Source: Ruegeria sp. HKCCD4315 (GTDB taxonomy: Bacteria > Pseudomonadota > Alphaproteobacteria > Rhodobacterales > Rhodobacteraceae). Taken from it: 64,000 bases of DNA. The notes under the pieces are model-generated. The model made no database searches and was not told the origin of the DNA. It saw only the letters and a list, made by a program, of their open reading frames with translations. A program made the translations under genes and the position numbers. The stretch spans positions 2,174,501-2,238,500 of the forward strand of contig NZ_WVRN01000001.1 in assembly GCF_013112245.1 (NCBI RefSeq). Direction: 5' to 3'. This document shows, one piece after another, positions 11,067 to 17,883 of the stretch; within the stretch, counting starts at the first letter, position 1, and the number at the start of each line of letters is the position of its first letter.

Positions 11067-11370
11067 CGAGTTCTCCCTTTACCATTCACGGAGAGTCAGT
11101 GTGGACTAGTACAGAATGAAAAAGCAATGGCGGCTTAACTTTGCTTCGTAAACCAAGGCGCAGGACGCAGCGAATGAACGTTTCTAGTCCCTTTCGACAG
11201 ATGCTTCGCTTGATCCAAATGTCTGCATTGGGCTCAAAGCCGTCATCCGACGGCATTAGCGATTAGACCGGTTTGTGGTTGCGAGCGGTCATTGGGGCCG
11301 CTCTCAGGATTGGTCCGACATCGGCCCTCCCAGTACTATTCAACGAGTTTTCAAGCTCAACTCCGAGATC
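11067..11370. other. Gap at the left edge of the terminase island
   Basis: No gene is supported. It holds interspersed repeat copy D (11226-11252) and related pieces such as GCGAGCGGTCATTGG near 11280. It separates the dehydrogenase from the terminase gene and probably contains the left boundary of the island. Confidence 0.45.
11226..11252 (+). repeat. Interspersed repeat copy D (weak)
   Basis: Reads CATTGGGCTC, AAAGCC, GTCATCCGACGG. It shares the left half and spacing with the other copies. Confidence 0.4.
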
Positions 11371-12846
11371 CTACCGTCGCCTGACCCTATCTCGATTACG
11401 CTCCCGACGTTCGATGTTGATCCGGTGGTCGCGGCCCAATGCCCGGTAGAAGCCCGGTCCCTTGGACCAGTTCAGAAAGTGGGCAAAGCTGTCGACCTGA
11501 TCATCGTTGCGTCCGCGTGGAAAGGACTGAAGCTCCCGTTTGAATACCGGCAGCCAGGATGCATCTGCAGGCAGATAAACCTTGCCCTCTTCGACAGGAC
11601 CGCAAGCGGACTGGAACCGGGTTTCCTTGTCCTTGTCGGGTTTAATGCGTTCGTAGCGCCGACGGTCATCACGAAACAATTCGTCCAAAAGAGGTTTGCC
11701 GGAGGCCGCATCTTCGATCAGGACACGATCGGGATCCCAACGGCCGACAAGTTGCAGTGCCTTGGCTTTCAGGTCTGGGTAGTCTACCTGCCCGCGCCAG
11801 ACGTCGATAAGATACCACGCATTTTCGCGGAACCCCCAGGTTGTACAGACAGAGAAATCAGACCGGGGGTCTGCCGACATGCCCGTATCCCAGCTCTGAA
11901 CCACCAGTTGGAACCAGCGGCGATCTTCGATGGTCTCGTAGGTGCCAAACCACTCCCAGCGCAAGGGCGACCCGTCGGGAGCAATGGGGTTCTGCTGATA
12001 CTGGCAATTGAACACGGCCGCGCCCATTTCGCGACGCTTGGTATCCAGCGTTTGCTGATCCAAACGGGACGGGCACAGGAGATCACCCGGTTTGCGGCGC
12101 ATGACCCTTCCACGCCCAAGAGGAACCACCTCATGGCCTTCTGCGATGGCAGGCAGATTCAGATGCCGGTAGGTCCCGCGTTCGAGCAGATAACCCGGCG
12201 GATCCATCTCGTGCAACCGTTGCGCAACCATAACCACACGCCCTTCGGCCGGATTGTCGAAGCGCGACAACAAGGTCCCCTCAATGAACTCCTGCGCCTT
12301 GACCAGCTCGGCTTCGGAGCCGGCATCTCCGGCTCTCAGCAGGTCATCGATGATGATGTAATCGGCGCCATGACCGGTGACAGAACTTCCAATGGAGACA
12401 GCCTTACGGCTGCCTCCCTTTGTGGTGCGGATTTCTTCTGAGGTGTTGCCCTTTTTAGCCAAGACCGTTTCAGGGAACATTTCCCGGTACCAGCGCGCAG
12501 ACATGATCCGACGACAATCTTCGGAATGTTTGCGCGCCAGATCCAACCCATAGCTGGCAACGATGATCTTGGCGCTGGGGTTATGACCGAGAAGATAAGC
12601 GACATATGCAACGGCCACGGTGACCGATTTCAGGCAACGTGGCGGGATGTTGATGATCAGTCGCTTGTTTTCGCCTCGACGGACATTGTCCAACTCATGG
12701 CACATGGCCCGCACATGCCAGGCCGGATCAAAGCTGCGGTCAGTTCCCTGGTGCAGCGTGCCAAACACACGCCACACGAAGGGAAAGATATTGTCTCGGC
12801 AAACCTCGCGAGCGGCTTGCACGATTTTTGGATCAGGAGTCGTCAT
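11371..12846 (-). CDS. Phage-type large terminase subunit
   Basis: 491 residues from ATG 12846, chosen because it starts MTTPDPKI and overlaps the end of the DUF5681 gene by 14 bases. The ATPase half has the modified Walker A INIPPRCLKSV (about residues 68-78) and Walker B ADYIIIDDLL (about residues 160-169). The nuclease half keeps an RNase H-like acidic set: QSWDTG (about 302-307), IEDAASGKPLLDEL and RNDDQVDSFAHFL. Such proteins cut and pump DNA into phage heads. Here no portal, capsid or tail gene follows. The gene is the last of a three-gene operon with DUF5681 and a ParB-methylase. Confidence 0.9.
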   Translation of the reverse strand: MTTPDPKIVQAAREVCRDNIFPFVWRVFGTLHQGTDRSFDPAWHVRAMCHELDNVRRGENKRLIINIPPRCLKSVTVAVAYVAYLLGHNPSAKIIVASYGLDLARKHSEDCRRIMSARWYREMFPETVLAKKGNTSEEIRTTKGGSRKAVSIGSSVTGHGADYIIIDDLLRAGDAGSEAELVKAQEFIEGTLLSRFDNPAEGRVVMVAQRLHEMDPPGYLLERGTYRHLNLPAIAEGHEVVPLGRGRVMRRKPGDLLCPSRLDQQTLDTKRREMGAAVFNCQYQQNPIAPDGSPLRWEWFGTYETIEDRRWFQLVVQSWDTGMSADPRSDFSVCTTWGFRENAWYLIDVWRGQVDYPDLKAKALQLVGRWDPDRVLIEDAASGKPLLDELFRDDRRRYERIKPDKDKETRFQSACGPVEEGKVYLPADASWLPVFKRELQSFPRGRNDDQVDSFAHFLNWSKGPGFYRALGRDHRINIERRERNRDRVRRR

Positions 12847-13264
12847 CTTCCGCCTCCTCGTTTTCCAGATCACCGTCACCGTCCAGTTGGCTGGAAAAGA
12901 AATCCCGGAGGATGTCGTAGTCGACAGCGTCCGGCTCAACCGTACGGACGCTTTCTTGCGCGTCCAATTCACTTGCGTTGAACAGATCTGTGTCCAGCTT
13001 AAGCAGCGCCATCAACAATTTCGTGTCGCCCTTCAACGCGCCTGCCGTGAACCGCTTGGCAATTGCCTCAGCCTTGGAAATCCGGATTTCGTGGCTGCCT
13101 TCGCGAACCGTAATCTTGGTTTCCAATTCGCGTTTCAAGCCGGCATTCACCCCTTTGGCACCTTTCGGCCGCCCTTTCGGATTGCCGGATCGGCCTTTTT
13201 TGAACTGGGTCGCTTTGGGCGGCTTGCCGTAACCCACCTCGTAGTCTTTCGTATCGTCAGACAT
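12833..13264 (-). CDS. DUF5681 protein, probable small-terminase-like DNA-binding partner
   Basis: 143 residues from ATG 13264. The N-terminal KPPKATQFKKGRSGNPKGRP (about residues 14-33) is the DUF5681 signature: a basic, Gly/Pro-rich segment usually followed by a helical domain. The C-terminus is strongly acidic (DGDGDLENEEAEDDDS). It overlaps the methylase by 8 bases and the terminase by 14, which suggests coupled translation and a complex with the terminase. Its position immediately before a large terminase is where a small subunit normally lies; this role is inference. Confidence 0.8.
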   Translation of the reverse strand: MSDDTKDYEVGYGKPPKATQFKKGRSGNPKGRPKGAKGVNAGLKRELETKITVREGSHEIRISKAEAIAKRFTAGALKGDTKLLMALLKLDTDLFNASELDAQESVRTVEPDAVDYDILRDFFSSQLDGDGDLENEEAEDDDS

Positions 13265-14651
13265 GACCCACCTCCTGTTCTGAAGTGGTATCGTTGGCCG
13301 CAGAACGCGCATCGAACGTCTCGCCTGTCACCGCGTGCACGGCGTTCTCACCAGTCATCTCCTGCCAACGGCGGATGGCGACATCGACATAGGCCGGGTC
13401 GAGCTCAATGAGCCGCGCCCGCCGCCCGGTTTTCTCTGCTGCCAGCAAGGTCGCCCCGGACCCGCCAAAGGCGTCCAGCACGACGTCGCCGCGGTGGCTC
13501 ACATCCATGATGGCATCTGCAACCAGAGCTGTCGGCTTCACCGTGGGATGATCCGCGAGATCCGCCTCGCGCCCTGCCCCAAAGCTGTTCACACCGGTAT
13601 AATCCCAGACATTGGTCCGGTTGCGCCCGTGCTTGCCCAATTCGACATTGTTGACATGCGCAGCACCTGGTTTCTTGAAGATCGCAACCAGCTCATGCTT
13701 GGAACGATAAAGGCTGCCCATCCCTCCGTTGGTTTTATTCCAGACGCAGAGATTGATGAGATCAAAGCCACCTGCCTTGCCCGCCGCAATCAACTCTTCG
13801 ATATGACGCCAGTCCATGCAGATCATCGCAATACGCCCGTCTGGCAGACGGCCAAACAACTGGGTGATCACGCCTGAAAGAAAGCCGCGGAACTCGCTAT
13901 CCGACATTTCTCCCGACGCCATGGCAAACTCGCGGTGTTCGGCGCTATTGCCGGACCGCACATGCCCATTGACCGGCACGTTGTAAGGCGGATCGGTGAA
14001 GACTATCTGCGGGGTCTCGCCTTCCAGCAAGGTGTCGTAGCTCTGGGTTTGAAGGGCGTCCCCGCAGAAAATGCGATGATCTCCGAGAACCCAGAGGTCG
14101 CCCGGCTCCGTGACTACGGGTGCCGCAGGGTCCGGCGTCTCAACAGTTTCCGCCACAGATTCCGTCACCTCACCGACGCTGTCGATAATGATGTCGATCT
14201 CCGGTGTTTCGAACCCTGTGATGTCCAGATCAAAATCCAGCTCGCCATCAAGGCTGAGATTCATCAGCTCGGCAAACTCAATCTGCAGAGCAGCTTCGTT
14301 CCAGTCGGACAATTCCGCCAGCTTGTTGTCCGCAATGCGCAGAGCGCGCACTTCCGCTTCTGACAAGTGATCCGCGACAACAGTCGGTACGGAATTCAAC
14401 CCCAGGGCCTTGGCGGCCTCATAGCGACCATGACCCGCGATGATGGTACCTTCAGCATCCAACAGGATCGGAGTGACAAAGCCAAACTGGGCCACCGATG
14501 CCTTCAGTTTGTCGACATTCTTGGCCGCGTGCACGCGGTTGTTGTTGGCGTAGGGCTTGATCTGGCTGATCTGGGATTGGATAACTTTCTCCGCCATCCA
14601 GATAGGCGTATTGGACGCCTGGACGTCGCTGTGTGTGTTTTCAGCAGGCAT
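13257..14651 (-). CDS. ParB-domain DNA methyltransferase (N4-cytosine/N6-adenine type)
   Basis: 464 residues from ATG 14651, with a strong AAGGAGG five bases upstream. A ParB/sulfiredoxin-like N-terminal domain (SQIKPYANNNRVHAAKN, then GFVTPILLDAEGTIIAGHGR) is followed by a methylase with TDPPYN and the late S-adenosylmethionine motif DAFGGSGATLLAAEKTG. The order, catalytic motif before the FxGxG motif, fits the beta class. No restriction nuclease is next to it. This architecture is common in alphaproteobacterial prophages. It may mark the element's DNA or recruit it through the ParB-like domain. Confidence 0.9.
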   Translation of the reverse strand: MPAENTHSDVQASNTPIWMAEKVIQSQISQIKPYANNNRVHAAKNVDKLKASVAQFGFVTPILLDAEGTIIAGHGRYEAAKALGLNSVPTVVADHLSEAEVRALRIADNKLAELSDWNEAALQIEFAELMNLSLDGELDFDLDITGFETPEIDIIIDSVGEVTESVAETVETPDPAAPVVTEPGDLWVLGDHRIFCGDALQTQSYDTLLEGETPQIVFTDPPYNVPVNGHVRSGNSAEHREFAMASGEMSDSEFRGFLSGVITQLFGRLPDGRIAMICMDWRHIEELIAAGKAGGFDLINLCVWNKTNGGMGSLYRSKHELVAIFKKPGAAHVNNVELGKHGRNRTNVWDYTGVNSFGAGREADLADHPTVKPTALVADAIMDVSHRGDVVLDAFGGSGATLLAAEKTGRRARLIELDPAYVDVAIRRWQEMTGENAVHAVTGETFDARSAANDTTSEQEVGHV

Positions 14652-15099
14652 AACCGCCTCCTTTTGCGTGACGCCGCGCGGACGTCGAGATGGAGGGATC
14701 GCGTTGGAAAATCGGAGAGAGCACAAATCGCAACTCCCCGGACCAATCGATCCGAGACGTTGCTCCTTTGAATGCTCTCGGCGGAAACCTGTGTTTCCAA
14801 TGAGTGCTGCCTGCGGGAGCAGTTTCCCGCCCCGATAGTCCGGGCGATTAGGTCGAATGTAGGTGCCATCAATACGAGACGCAACCCCCCAAACTAAAAG
14901 TAACCAATTAAGATTGTTGACGAATAATCGGGGGTACGGCAGCGTCGCACTTCAAAACACACGCCTCCAGTAATCGTTTCAGAAAGAGCTGGACTGTTGC
15001 CGTCAACCACGCATCACTGAACCCACGCCCGAGCCATTCGGGCGCTCCTCGGTACCGGGGTTCGGCATCTCGCTGACCCAAGATCAGAGGAGACAGTTC
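14652..15099. other. Divergent control region of the island
   Basis: About 450 bases between the two diverging operons, so both promoters should lie here. Visible structures are two perfect 6-bp hairpins, GGAAAC-ctgt-GTTTCC (14784-14799) and GCGGGA-N6-TCCCGC (14814-14831), and an AT-rich stretch at about 14890-14930. A 99-codon minus frame at 14908-15207 overlaps the DUF3489 gene and looks like a shadow. No repressor gene is seen in the island. Confidence 0.5.
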
Positions 15100-15330
15100 A
15101 TGTCCAAACGGAAGCAAACCAAAATTGACAAGGTTCAAGCTTTGTTGCGTCGCCCGAGCGGCGCCAGCCTTGAGGCGCTCTGCAAAGCAACGGGGTGGCA
15201 GCTTCATTCGGTCCGAGCGGCTCTAAGCGGCCTGCGGAAAAAAGGCGTCACAATTGAAAGGCGGACATCCGACAAACCAGATGGTTCTTCCACCTATCAC
15301 CTGACGGTGGGAACAGGAGAAGAGTCATGA
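15100..15330 (+). CDS. DUF3489 protein (small winged-helix-like)
   Basis: 76 residues. It begins MSKRKQTKIDKVQALLRRP and contains GASLEALCKATGWQLHSVRA and ALSGLRKKGVTIERR, the standard DUF3489 pattern of a short helix-turn-helix with a basic wing. The family is almost always found beside DUF2924 and a serine recombinase, as here. It overlaps the next gene by 4 bases. A role as accessory DNA-binding factor or regulator of the recombinase is likely but unproven. Confidence 0.88.
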   Translation: MSKRKQTKIDKVQALLRRPSGASLEALCKATGWQLHSVRAALSGLRKKGVTIERRTSDKPDGSSTYHLTVGTGEES

Positions 15331-15743
15331 CCAAGACTAGCGATGTTGCCGATCTGGCCGTCATGGGACGATCGGATCTGGTCACGCTTTGGCAGCAACT
15401 GTTTGATCAACCCGCCCCCGCCATGCTCAGCCAACCCTTCCTGCGCCGCTTTATCGCCTTTGAGATGCAGTCCCGCCGTCATGGCAGGCTACCCCGTCAA
15501 GTCAAAGCCACGCTGGAAAAGGGCTCTGGGAAGAAACCCCGGCCTACATGCCCTGCCCTAAAACCCGGCGGGCGCCTGCTACGCGAGTGGAATAGTGTGA
15601 CCCATGTAGTCGACGTTACAGAAGACGGCTTCACTTGGAACGGTCGGTCCTATCGCTCACTCTCGGCCATCGCCCGAGAGATTTCCGGCGCGCATTGGTC
15701 GGGGCCGCGTTTCCTTGGGCTCACCGGCAAGGCCGCCAAATGA
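15327..15743 (+). CDS. DUF2924 protein
   Basis: 138 residues. SDLVTLWQQLFDQPAPA near the start, LRRFIAFEMQSRRHG, a basic middle and the C-terminal block VTEDGFTWNGRSYRSLSAIA with ISGAHWSGPRFLGL match DUF2924. The last block resembles DNA-end or nucleoprotein binding domains of recombinase-associated proteins. ATGA overlaps join it to both neighbours, so DUF3489, DUF2924 and the recombinase are made together. Function unknown; a recombination accessory factor is the simplest guess. Confidence 0.88.
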   Translation: MTKTSDVADLAVMGRSDLVTLWQQLFDQPAPAMLSQPFLRRFIAFEMQSRRHGRLPRQVKATLEKGSGKKPRPTCPALKPGGRLLREWNSVTHVVDVTEDGFTWNGRSYRSLSAIAREISGAHWSGPRFLGLTGKAAK

Positions 15744-17419
15744 GCCCGCGCCGTAAAATCCGATGCGCCATCTACACGCGCAAGTCCTCAGAAGATGGTC
15801 TGGATCAGGACTTCAATTCGCTGGATGCGCAATATGAGGCCTGTGCGGCCTATGTCGCAAGCCAGCGACATGAAGGCTGGACCCTGCTGTCCGGGCGCTA
15901 CGATGACGGTGGCCTGTCGGGCGGCACCCTAGAGCGCCCCGCCCTTCAGCGCCTTCTTGAAGAGATCGATGCCGGGCGTATTGACATGGTGGTGGTCTAC
16001 AAGATTGACCGGCTGACCCGGTCGCTTGCCGACTTCTCTAAGCTGGTCGACCGGCTCGAACAGGCAAACTGTTCTTTTGTGTCCGTCACGCAGGCCTTCA
16101 ATACCTCATCTTCCATGGGCCGGTTAACGCTGAATGTGCTGTTGTCCTTTGCTCAGTTTGAACGGGAAGTCACCGCCGAACGTATTCGCGACAAGATTGC
16201 AGCGTCGAAGAATAAGGGGCTTTGGATGGGTGGCAACCTGCCTCTGGGCTATGATCGCCACCCCGATCCGAAGGCAAGAACGCTGGTGGTGAATGAAGAG
16301 GAGGCCAGAACGGTCCGGCATCTCTTTGGGCTTTATGATGAGCTGGGTTGCCTGCGCAAAGTAGAAGAACGGGCAACGGCAGAAGGGCTGCGGTCAAAAC
16401 GGGTTGTTCGGACAGATGGCAGTGTGAAGGGGGATTGTCCGCTGTCACGGGGTCAAATCTATTACCTGCTGCGCAATCCGGTCTATCTCGGAAAAATCCG
16501 CCACAAGGATAAGATCTGGGACGGACAACATCCGGCGATCATCGATCAGGACATCTGGGACCGGGTGCAGGAAAAAATGCGACAGGCCTCCAACCGCTCG
16601 CGGGCACGCGGCGACTCCGATGCGCGCCAACGCTCCACTGACCCCGGGGCCTGGCTCACCGGTCTGCTGTATGACGAAACTGGTGATCGGTTGACGCCGA
16701 CCCACACCACGCGCAAAGGCCGACGGTTGCGCTACTATATCTCCAATCGACTGATCTCAGGTGGCAAGGATATCTCTGGCTGGCGACTGCCCGGCCCGGC
16801 GCTGGAACACGCCGTCATGGACGTCATCGTCAGACATTTGCAAGACGCCGCCGCGGCGCACCAAGTACTGGCGCAACCGGTGGCCGGGTCAGCCGAGCCA
16901 GTTCAGACTTCAGTTGCGGATTTAGTAACCCGGCTTCTAGGCCAAGGCTGTCAGATCGGCGCTGCTCTTCTGGCCAAAGGCAAACTTGCACGAGGACAGA
17001 TCGACCTCGAATTTAACCACAAAACTCTGGCAAGCGCACTTGGCATCGCGGCCGATCATCTGCACCCGGATCTCACCCACGTCACCGCATCTTTCGATCT
17101 GCGCCGCCGCGGCGTCGAGGCCAAGGTCATCGCCGGAGACATGGCACCCCAACCTGATCCCCACCTCCGGTCCATGCTGATCCGCGCACATGGCTGGGCC
17201 CGTGATCTGAAGGCCGGAGTTCAACTGATGGAGATTGCCCGCCGCGAAAGCGTCCCTGACGCCTTCATCCGCACCCGTGCTCAGCTCGCCTTTCTCTCAC
17301 CGAAGATTCAAACGGCGATTCTCGACGGGACCCAGCCGCCCGAACTCACACTCAAGCGTCTGGTCAGCGTGACCCACCCACTTGAATGGTCCGAACAGGA
17401 ACGCCTGTTCGGCTTCTGA
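15740..17419 (+). CDS. Large serine recombinase
   Basis: 559 residues from ATG 15740 (ATGA overlap with DUF2924). The resolvase domain starts RCAIYTRKSSEDG with the catalytic Ser at residue 16, then SLDAQYEAC, DDGGLSGGTLERPALQRLL, VVYKIDRLTRSLADF and the helix E segment. A recombinase domain follows (GGNLPLGYD, then QIYYLLRNPVYLGKIRHKD) with a zinc-ribbon-like region lacking the usual cysteines. Such enzymes integrate or excise elements, or invert DNA. It is the only mobility enzyme in the island and probably moved it. The short repeats after its stop codon may be its binding sites. Confidence 0.93.
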   Translation: MSPRRKIRCAIYTRKSSEDGLDQDFNSLDAQYEACAAYVASQRHEGWTLLSGRYDDGGLSGGTLERPALQRLLEEIDAGRIDMVVVYKIDRLTRSLADFSKLVDRLEQANCSFVSVTQAFNTSSSMGRLTLNVLLSFAQFEREVTAERIRDKIAASKNKGLWMGGNLPLGYDRHPDPKARTLVVNEEEARTVRHLFGLYDELGCLRKVEERATAEGLRSKRVVRTDGSVKGDCPLSRGQIYYLLRNPVYLGKIRHKDKIWDGQHPAIIDQDIWDRVQEKMRQASNRSRARGDSDARQRSTDPGAWLTGLLYDETGDRLTPTHTTRKGRRLRYYISNRLISGGKDISGWRLPGPALEHAVMDVIVRHLQDAAAAHQVLAQPVAGSAEPVQTSVADLVTRLLGQGCQIGAALLAKGKLARGQIDLEFNHKTLASALGIAADHLHPDLTHVTASFDLRRRGVEAKVIAGDMAPQPDPHLRSMLIRAHGWARDLKAGVQLMEIARRESVPDAFIRTRAQLAFLSPKIQTAILDGTQPPELTLKRLVSVTHPLEWSEQERLFGF

Positions 17420-17793
17420 CATCTCCAGATCCTGCGTCCCTGATACAGGGTTCGCCCTCCCTGATCCGTCGGCACAATTCCCTGTTCCCACGAGAAAATT
17501 CCCTGTTCCGCCTTTTAGGGAATTTGCAGCATAAACCTCTGAAAACATACAGTTCTGATAGAAGAAATGACGGAAATCAGTCCCGGTTTGCGAAAATTCC
17601 CTGTAAATTGCAGGTTATCAGGGAAATCCAGCCCAAAGCGACCCCACCAAAATGCGACACTGAGACTTGCGCCTGAATTGTCCTCTGAATGTACGGTTTG
17701 CTTCGTCTCTGATTGAAAGCGCATGCGCCAACGCGCGGGAATTGCGGCACAATTTCGGGTCAGAAAACACAACTGAAGTGAGACAGGTATGAG
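17420..17793. other. Gap with short repeats between recombinase and tRNA-Ser
   Basis: No gene is seen. The first 210 bases carry copies of AATTCCCTGT in both orientations (listed separately). The remaining part is GC-poorer than the core and probably contains the right edge of the island. Confidence 0.5.
17476..17628. repeat. Short AATTCCCTGT repeat array next to the recombinase
   Basis: AATTCCCTGTTCC occurs at 17476-17488 and again, identical, at 17497-17509 (21 bases start to start, two helical turns). An inverted AGGGAATT is at 17517-17524, AATTCCCTGT at 17595-17604, and inverted AGGGAAAT at 17620-17627. Regular spacing and mixed orientation look like protein binding sites, perhaps for the recombinase or its accessory proteins. 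Confidence 0.6.
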
Positions 17794-17883
17794 TGGCGGG
17801 GAGACAGGGATTCGAACCCTGGGGACGCTCTCACGCCCAACGGTTTTCAAGACCGCCGCATTCGACCACTCTGCCACCTCCCC
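17794..17883 (-). tRNA. tRNA-Ser (anticodon TGA)
   Basis: 90 bases including an encoded CCA. The acceptor stem GGGGAGG pairs with TCTCCCC, and the T arm holds GGTTCGAATCC. The long variable arm, typical of serine tRNAs, is present, and the anticodon loop CTTGAAAA gives TGA (plus-strand positions 17847-17849). A plausible promoter on the same strand is TTGCCT, 16 bases, TTAGAC, ending about 14 bases before the mature 5' end. No second copy of its 3' end was found at the far side of the recombinase island. Confidence 0.95.

What the first reader, a model, noticed from the sequence alone, without database searches (positions are those of the whole stretch)
11371..17419. Compact two-operon element with recombinase, ParB-methylase and terminase but no virion genes
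The six genes form two tight divergent operons (ParB-methylase/DUF5681/large terminase and DUF3489/DUF2924/serine recombinase). Overlaps of 4-14 bases link them, and the ATPase and nuclease motifs of the terminase look intact. No portal, capsid or tail gene is present, so the packaging motor seems kept for something else. Possibilities are a satellite that uses another phage's heads, a domesticated DNA-processing complex, or a defence element. Families such as DUF2924, DUF3489 and DUF5681 have no known function. The set recurs in relatives as I recall, but no mechanism is assigned to it as far as I know. This is the best candidate here for an undescribed system.
Basis: partly seen in the sequence, partly recalled or inferred. 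Interest (0 to 1): 0.75.

Follow-up and report, generated by a model that had tools for sequence, protein, structure and literature searches.

The report
Capsid-less satellite with its own packaging motor
Beside serine tRNA genes of Roseobacter-type bacteria sits a compact 6.6-kb DNA unit with six genes, including a conserved phage-type DNA-packaging motor but no recognised shell or tail genes; it has likely moved between species and would, if the satellite reading is right, use its own motor to load itself into the shells of another virus.

Summary
The six genes are real and form one sharply bounded element (about window 11229-17793). Against Ruegeria locus L032 it averages 97% identity, which collapses at the left edge and just outside a tRNA-Ser gene. 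All six genes recur in 20 of 42 loci found with the terminase. A tRNA-Ser gene, of three anticodon types, lies beside the recombinase end in 21 of 24 loci holding that end. No head or tail genes were recognised beside it. Terminase ATPase and nuclease residues are invariant in 22 aligned sequences; terminase dN/dS is 0.05-0.09 in the six congeneric pairs with dS above 0.3. In seven of eight congeneric pairs every element gene diverges less than the neighbouring host gene. Packaging and integration genes have been exchanged. Relatives carry restriction-modification cargo. A predicted structured RNA, without an Rfam match, leads the packaging operon. Best reading: a phage satellite bringing a TerS-like protein and TerL but no capsid. 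Excision, packaging and helper are untested. The papers searched show no satellite with TerL but no capsid.

The parts
11229..17793 (.). whole element, from its left edge to the 3' end of tRNA-Ser
   Evidence: blastn edges; sliding identity to L032: mean 97% over 66 windows of 100 bases, 45 of 66 at 97% or more, lowest 84%; 42% left of the edge, 53-77% beyond the tRNA
11229..11370 (.). left end, non-coding; carries CTTGAAAACtCGTTGAA, resembling the tRNA-Ser(TGA) anticodon arm
   Evidence: resemblance read by eye
11371..12846 (-). large terminase subunit (TerL), 491 aa
   Evidence: PF17289 1.1e-13, phrog_38 6.6e-106; invariant motifs
12833..13264 (-). DUF5681 protein, 143 aa, in the small-terminase slot
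   Evidence: PF18932; same slot in Leptospira phage LE3
13257..14651 (-). ParB N-terminal domain fused to N6/N4 DNA methyltransferase, 464 aa
   Evidence: PF02195, PF01555, phrog_498
14715..14837 (-). structured leader RNA (predicted) of the packaging operon
   Evidence: fold z -5.4; model hits in 29 distinct elements, 18 of them its own building set; no Rfam match at gathering threshold
15100..15330 (+). DUF3489 protein, 76 aa
   Evidence: PF11994 2.7e-21
15327..15743 (+). DUF2924 protein, 138 aa
   Evidence: PF11149 7.6e-38
15740..17419 (+). large serine recombinase, 559 aa
   Evidence: PF00239, PF07508, phrog_95; start codon
17420..17793 (.). non-coding site array: GTCTC 17780-17784 and 17662-17666, GAGAC 17705-17709, TCCCTG/CAGGGA pair at 17619-17624 and 17598-17603, CAGGGA at 17500-17505, 17479-17484, 17458-17463, 17437-17442 (21-base steps), all read in tRNA sense
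   Evidence: spacing
17794..17883 (-). tRNA-Ser(TGA), target; its 3' end faces the element

Best explanation
The element is likely a phage satellite that would excise and integrate beside tRNA-Ser genes with its serine recombinase and would package itself with its own terminase into heads made by a helper phage. Shown by calls: a six-gene unit bounded on both sides, set beside tRNA-Ser genes in many genomes, with no head or tail genes recognised beside it and a terminase under strong purifying selection. Inferred: DUF5681 acts as the small terminase subunit and TerL docks on the portal of a helper phage, filling its head with concatemers of the 6.6-kb unit, since no head-size gene is present. 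Inferred: the ParB-methyltransferase marks or protects element DNA or times packaging, DUF3489 and DUF2924 help or steer the recombinase, the structured leader controls expression of the packaging operon, and the 21-base phased repeats bind an element protein. None of the six genes is a recognised replication gene, so copying would depend on host or helper.
For: Sharp two-sided boundary. A complete tRNA-Ser of three anticodon types (TGA 15, GGA 5, GCT 1) beside the recombinase end in 21 of 24 loci holding that end, 367-395 bases away in the 14 printed. Rigid site array in the 18 tRNA-Ser elements compared. In 7 of 8 congeneric pairs all six element genes have lower dS than the adjacent host gene, e.g. 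L032 TerL 0.02 and recombinase 0.03 versus 1.23. TerL dN/dS 0.05-0.09 in six congeneric pairs, with invariant catalytic residues in 22 of 22. Recombinase and TerL trees conflict with strong support, so the packaging set is exchanged. Portal phrog_146 in 2 of 33 terminase-bearing genomes, both times right beside a distant TerL. A DUF5681-like gene overlaps terL, one small gene before portal, in phage LE3. Restriction-modification cargo in relatives. A similar layout on a 5.4-kb scaffold deposited as a phage from human faeces, DUF2924 only in part.
Against: No excised circle, packaged DNA or helper was seen. The DUF5681 model (pLDDT 73.9, pTM 0.38) matches no solved structure at E <= 0.001, so its TerS role rests on position. 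The own genome shows neither portal family tested, so a helper would probably come from outside. The dS contrast rests on one host gene; it fails for L031 (ParB-MTase 0.23, DUF3489 0.29, host 0.25) and is not seen in more distant, nearly saturated pairs such as L046 and L047. The left end of window-type copies lacks a clear tRNA duplication, and nine related loci end in a tRNA-Met 3' half that I cannot explain. Many sites hold decayed remnants. The seven close IMG/VR contigs have no terminal repeats. Six-gene loci L115 and L118 have no tRNA within the stretch held.
Confidence: 0.6

Rival explanations
1. It is a remnant of a prophage: integration and packaging genes are left after loss of the virion genes.
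For: The packaging order TerS-slot/TerL is that of phages; decayed copies and 3' TerL remnants exist.
Against: The same six genes without recognised virion genes recur in several genera; TerL dN/dS is 0.05-0.09 in six congeneric pairs; sharp unit that seems to move; tblastn finds the window's DUF5681 in only 3 of 50,697 phage records, two of them one phage and one the faecal scaffold, though the domain is known from other phages.
Confidence: 0.1
2. It is an integrative element whose terminase and ParB-methyltransferase serve defence: they interfere with packaging or destroy the DNA of incoming phages, and self-transfer is secondary.
For: Relatives carry EcoRII-type, C5-methylase and Vsr genes next to the same cassette; PADLOC methyltransferase models match the ParB-MTase; P4-like satellites carry antiviral genes (PMC9122126, abstract start in listings).
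Against: No restriction partner among the six genes and no PADLOC match for the other five proteins; TerL keeps both motor and nuclease motifs.
Confidence: 0.15
3. It is an integrative element in which the terminase was recruited for DNA processing of the element itself (for example cutting concatemers or aiding transfer) with no capsid involved.
For: No helper known; no recognised replication or conjugation gene among the six, so a mobility step is unexplained.
Against: No precedent known to me; a DUF5681-TerL pair like this lies in the packaging-to-portal order of phage LE3.
Confidence: 0.1
4. It rides in gene transfer agent particles of the host family.
For: PF05065 capsid matches occur in 23 of 33 genomes examined; I did not check which of them are GTA capsids.
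Against: 10 of 33 genomes have no PF05065 match, and the two matches in the own genome are divergent phage-like heads; RcGTA heads hold about 4 kb (recalled), less than the element.
Confidence: 0.05

Closest known systems
PICMI, minimalist satellites of Vibrio (PMC10803314, passages)
   Same: about 6 kb, integrative, no capsid-remodelling genes, marine hosts
   Different: PICMI sits beside fis, its authors found no terS, sid or ppi homologue, and it depends on the helper's particles; here a serine recombinase at tRNA-Ser and an own TerL with a gene in the TerS slot
PICI and cf-PICI (as described in passages of PMC10690885)
   Same: chromosomal satellite logic; cf-PICIs also carry large and small terminase genes
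   Different: PICIs use the helper's terminase, redirected by an own TerS or by Rpp; cf-PICIs also carry portal, protease, capsid and connectors, all absent here
Streptomyces satellites MulchRoom and MiniFlayer (PMC10690885, passages)
   Same: own small and large terminase, no primase
   Different: they also encode portal and capsid
AH14b satellite of Pseudomonas (PMC4936722, abstract start and passages)
   Same: satellite using the heads of another phage
   Different: 16.8 kb, own primase, no terminase gene identified
PLE of Vibrio cholerae (PMC6002521, abstract start in listing)
   Same: island excised with a large serine recombinase
   Different: larger, and no own TerL known to me (both recalled)
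VEIMEs and tycheposons (papers not held; known only from mentions in PMC10803314, PMC10690885 and PMC11389934)
   Same: marine integrative elements linked to virions

Membership tests
phage satellite (general) | packaged in particles made by a helper phage | not testable with these tools
   no read or virion data; a similar layout on a 5.4-kb faecal scaffold deposited as a phage, whose link to a particle-enriched virome study is unproven
phage satellite (general) | no complete virion gene set of its own | tested here: met
   none among the six genes; ten ORFs flanking the window copy are chromosomal; 107 of 169 ORFs called beyond the terminase in 23 loci show no head family among the 25 displayed of 80 PHROGs matched; a single-member tail family was not followed up; portal phrog_146 absent near elements
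phage satellite (general) | integrative and horizontally mobile | tested here: met
   by comparison only; excision itself not tested
cf-PICI | own portal and major capsid genes | tested here: not met
   none among the six genes; none near elements
PICI / P4-like | own primase (PMC10690885 passage: known satellites have one) | tested here: not met
   no such gene among the six
PICMI | integration beside fis; no terS homologue | tested here: not met
   tRNA-Ser site and own TerL
prophage | head and tail genes linked to the terminase | tested here: not met
   positive controls G552 and G565 with portal beside a distant TerL
serine-recombinase integrative element at tRNA genes | recombinase gene beside a tRNA 3' end at near-constant distance | tested here: met
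   21 of 24 loci with that end held
serine-recombinase integrative element at tRNA genes | matching att repeats at both ends | tested here: inconclusive
   tRNA 3' pieces at the left end of some copies, Met-type in nine distinct loci, unclear in the window
terminase holoenzyme | TerL ATPase and RNase H-like nuclease residues | tested here: met
   P69 R70 K73, D167 D168, D320, E378, D449, D452 invariant in 22 sequences; roles assigned from general knowledge
terminase holoenzyme | small subunit of TerS fold | tested here: inconclusive
   position fits; predicted fold has no solved match

The most novel reading that the evidence does not exclude
This is a separate class of phage satellite, motor without shell: a tRNA-targeting serine-recombinase element that brings its whole terminase and a ParB-methyltransferase but no head, swaps its packaging cassette to fit different helpers, and runs that cassette through an undescribed structured RNA that takes part in packaging or its control. 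In this genome two integrase-bearing islands with head and tape-measure genes but no detected terminase (L127, L128) could even be its partners.
Probability: 0.35. Interest if true: 0.85.

Novelty: new variant of a known kind. Interest (0 to 1): 0.72.

Why it matters
As described in the papers read in passages, satellites borrow the helper's terminase, redirect it, or carry terminase together with capsid. A satellite with a full motor and no shell would show that the motor alone can be the parasitic tool, would test how far TerL can dock on foreign portals, and would give function to DUF5681, DUF2924 and DUF3489. It is six genes long and relatives sit in culturable Roseobacter-group strains, so it can be tested. 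More distant relatives carry restriction-modification genes, so the family may also spread defence.

Tried and rejected
Disfavoured: decayed prophage (TerL dN/dS, recurrence, mobility). Disfavoured: GTA rider as the general answer (10 of 33 genomes lack PF05065). Tried without result: exact direct repeats of 11 bases or more between left end and tRNA region; tRNA-Ser 3' piece at the window's left end; terminal repeats on IMG/VR contigs; the 374-base array as a structured RNA (z -0.97); sigma-70 or terminator enrichment; solved fold for DUF5681. The tRNA-Met halves were considered as traces of a neighbouring tyrosine-integrase island; I recognised no such integrase among the ORFs that I read next to them in L109 and L054, and the one in L048 is a transposase. 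A packaging-RNA role like that of phi29 (recalled) for the leader is not favoured: L113 keeps part of the RNA and a 62% ParB-MTase while its TerL is only 42%, so the RNA seems to go with the methyltransferase. One search used a misremembered Pfam accession and says nothing. One search miscounted gene presence by a script error; one search is the corrected count.

Results against my reading: TerL dN/dS was 0.46 in the two closest pairs (L031, L032), where dS is 0.01-0.02; 0.12 in L059, where dS is near saturation; DUF5681 reached 0.66 in one pair with dS 0.04. For the leader RNA, two-sided changes are few (3 of 18 pairs), sliding the partners by +3 columns gives 4 pairs with such changes, and 33 of 500 shuffles reach the covariation score; the model misses the six-gene loci L055 and L059 and also L120 and L142, and gives 21 weaker rows on the opposite strand. 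The hairpin test treats related sequences as independent. PF05065 does not detect every head protein: it missed the one beside the distant terminase of G565, which matches phrog_264. Nine of the 42 genomes with a terminase match, those with short or weak matches, were left out.
Full report
WHAT IS THERE. The window holds two tight, divergent operons. Minus strand: ParB_N + N6/N4 methyltransferase (13257-14651), DUF5681 (12833-13264) and large terminase (11371-12846). Plus strand: DUF3489 (15100-15330), DUF2924 (15327-15743) and a large serine recombinase (15740-17419). Domains come, the recombinase start. The 3' end of a tRNA-Ser(TGA) gene lies 374 bases beyond the recombinase stop. Six ORFs on the left and four on the right of the unit are ordinary chromosomal families, such as glutaminase, a 3-hydroxyisobutyrate-type dehydrogenase, SPOR, D-alanyl-D-alanine carboxypeptidase and thymidylate kinase. 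The tools name no organism for the window; the nearest copies of the element are in Ruegeria, so the host is probably a Ruegeria.

THE UNIT AND ITS EDGES. A scan of species genomes with the terminase gave 42 loci. All six genes are at least 60% covered in 20 of 42; five of six in 5; the other 17 have fewer: contig-end pieces, partial or decayed copies, 3' terminase remnants and one lone full-length terminase, L042. Close copies stop matching the window at about 11228 (or at 11371 in copies with another left end), followed by different DNA. Against L032 the mean identity from 11300 to the tRNA-Ser is 97%, 45 of 66 windows of 100 bases being at 97% or more, with dips to 84% in the methyltransferase gene; it falls to 42% left of the edge and to 53-77% beyond the tRNA. 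Against L031, whose flank is closer kin, it falls to 36% on the left and to 67-94% on the right. Synonymous divergence from L032 is 0.02 for TerL and 0.03 for the recombinase but 1.23 for the neighbouring carboxypeptidase gene. In seven of the eight congeneric pairs (L032, L034-L037, L041, L043) all six element genes have lower dS than that host gene; in L031 one of six is above it and another nearly equal; in the more distant L046 and L047, where dS is nearly saturated, the contrast is absent. Only one host gene was compared. This is what a horizontally moving unit looks like. In the genus 54 of 54 genomes match the tRNA and flank query, in G802 at two separate places. Of 30 of these sites that I looked at, 12, the window included, have recombinase sequence beside the tRNA, 9 have unrelated DNA by my reading, and 9 have remnants, element-like non-coding DNA only, or end at a contig edge.

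THE TARGET. In 21 of the 24 loci that hold the recombinase 3' end, a complete tRNA-Ser gene lies beside it: 15 TGA, 5 GGA, 1 GCT. Of the other three, L050 and L054 have only a 3' piece of a tRNA-Ser and L049 has no match. The distance to the recombinase end was 367-395 bases in the 14 printed. From the family search, L113, L114 and L120 have the six genes at tRNA-Ser and L109 has them with a tRNA-Ser at the edge of the stretch; L115, with another gene order, and L118 have the six genes but no tRNA in the stretch held. More distant members sit at tRNA-Gln (L130) or tRNA-Arg (L131, no DUF3489 match). In the 18 non-coding regions at tRNA-Ser that I compared, GAGAC at position 84, GTCTC at 126-127, TCCCTG at 167-171 and CAGGGA at 286-289 are present in 18 of 18, GTCTC at 9 in 13 of 18, and further CAGGGA copies follow at about 21-base steps in most. 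GAGAC at 84 is kept in 2 of 3 tRNA-Gln regions, which lack the CAGGGA series. I read the first group as recombinase sites and the phased repeats as binding sites of another element protein; both readings are inference.

NO VIRION GENES RECOGNISED. I scanned 107 of the 169 ORFs called beyond the terminase, from 23 loci: PHROGs matched 80 families, of which the 25 most frequent are displayed and include no head family and one single-member tail family; Pfam matched 107 families, 25 displayed, among them amidohydrolases, RepB partition proteins and transposases. The families not displayed were not seen. Portal family phrog_146 occurs in 2 of 33 genomes (of 42 with a terminase match; nine with short or weak matches left out), in both cases directly beside a terminase of 31-32% identity (G552, G565), which serves as a positive control. 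Capsid family PF05065 occurs in 23 of 33; the closest on the same contig as a terminase match is about 127 kb away (G395), others in the same contig are 0.6 Mb or more away, the rest on other contigs, some of them short. PF05065 does not cover every head protein: it missed that of G565. The own genome has no PF04860 portal, no PF03354 terminase, and one match each to PF17289 and phrog_38, both the window copy.

SELECTION AND EXCHANGE. Residues P69, R70, K73, D167, D168, D320, E378, D449 and D452 of the terminase are invariant in 22 of 22 aligned sequences; their roles (ATPase, nuclease) are assigned from knowledge of terminases. Against L034-L037, L041 and L043, TerL dN/dS is 0.05-0.09, ParB-MTase 0.12-0.16, recombinase 0.12-0.24 and DUF5681 0.26-0.66. 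In L031 and L032 TerL is 0.46, but on dS of 0.01-0.02. In trees of 22 elements the recombinase places L109 inside the group of the window and L040 outside, while TerL places L040 next to Ruegeria (100/99) and L109 far away (100/99, with long branches flagged). The packaging cassette has thus been exchanged between integration modules.

RELATIVES. Distant cassettes (TerL about 39-42%) include six-gene sets (L109, L113, L114, L118) and longer islands: L107 adds a DNA methyltransferase and an EcoRII-type endonuclease; L112 and L130, overlapping stretches of one genome, add a C5 methylase, Vsr and a peptidase before DUF3489-DUF2924-recombinase at tRNA-Gln. In IMG/VR, 7 of 24 hits carry close terminases of 68-77% (L137-L143): L138-L140 look like contigs of isolates already listed, and L137, L141, L142 and L143 are contigs of 5.4-6.5 kb; none has exact terminal repeats. 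Record MT839917 (5,365 bases, human faeces) carries recombinase, a DUF2924 piece, ParB-MTase, DUF5681 and TerL in the same layout. A particle-enriched faecal virome from Mexico exists (PMC8361208, listing and passages), but the text searched does not name that record.

DUF5681. In phage LE3 the DUF5681-like gene overlaps terL, which is followed by a 51-codon ORF and portal, and in three other phages with related TerL the gene in that slot is an annotated small terminase; two match GP3_package (one below its cut-off) and one Terminase_2. The predicted structure has moderate confidence and no solved match; its best viral match is DUF5681 of phage LE4. The family is large: 6310 proteins at E <= 0.001. 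A DUF5681 protein was retrieved in the structural proteome of a Salmonella phage (PMC8954984, passages).

LEADER RNA. Upstream of the ParB-MTase, 14715-14837 on the minus strand folds with z -5.4; the six copies tested have z between -2.5 and -5.7. The conserved stems pair in 95.7% of cells, against 40-50% when slid; two-sided changes are few (3 of 18 pairs; 4 when slid by +3), one-sided changes to G-U are common. A preceding hairpin keeps a fold while its sequence changes: 15 segments, single p 0.0005-0.095, combined 3e-13 with related sequences treated as independent. The model finds it on the sense strand in 29 distinct elements among 79 sources (34 rows, 5 of them repeats); 18 of the 29 built the model, and L113 and L054 match only in part. 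It misses the six-gene loci L055 and L059, also L120 and L142, the distant cassettes other than L113, and the phage loci; 21 weaker rows lie on the opposite strand. No Rfam family matches at gathering threshold except the tRNA. The G-U pairs favour RNA over a DNA palindrome; that is inference.

MECHANISM. The best account is a satellite with its own motor. Steps shown: bounded unit, target, conserved motor, no head or tail genes recognised nearby. Steps inferred: mobility from comparison, excision, DUF5681 as TerS, docking on a helper portal, headful concatemer packaging as in PICMI (PMC10803314, passages), and the role of methylation, for which phage P1, where methylation controls pac cleavage, is a recalled analogy.

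NOVELTY. The literature searches and the passages read show satellites with an own TerS, with terminase plus capsid, or with no terminase. I saw none with TerL and no capsid or portal; the VEIME and tycheposon papers were not held, so that comparison is open. At least one of the three DUF names occurs in 5 papers of the library.

Noticed in passing
L127 (own genome C1:1540000-1559500) and L128 (C1:1066500-1086000): Two integrase-bearing islands, one near a tRNA-Ser and one beside a tRNA-Cys, with primase-helicase, major head protein (phrog_617) and tape measure but no terminase or portal recognised among the ORFs scanned; possible satellites or partners.
   Followed up: partly
L126:7738-9976 (own genome C1:2466000-2485500): Second recombinase/DUF2924/DUF3489 module in the own genome, beside tRNA-Gln(ttg), without a terminase match.
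   Followed up: partly
left ends of L048, L049, L050, L053, L054, L058, L081, L109 (twice), L142: A tRNA-Met 3' half starting at the anticodon loop follows the terminase stop, although the other end, where seen, is at tRNA-Ser; unexplained.
   Followed up: partly
L123:9760-9888 (own genome C1:186247-186426), L063-L072: 3' fragments of the terminase gene elsewhere in genomes, several keeping the element's left edge and broken off at different upstream points.
   Followed up: partly
L203 (Sphingobium plasmid AP027331.1): ParB-MTase, DUF5681 and terminase on a 1.28-Mb plasmid with no virion genes annotated within 9 kb; a match to the DUF2924/recombinase region lies about 37 kb away.
   Followed up: no
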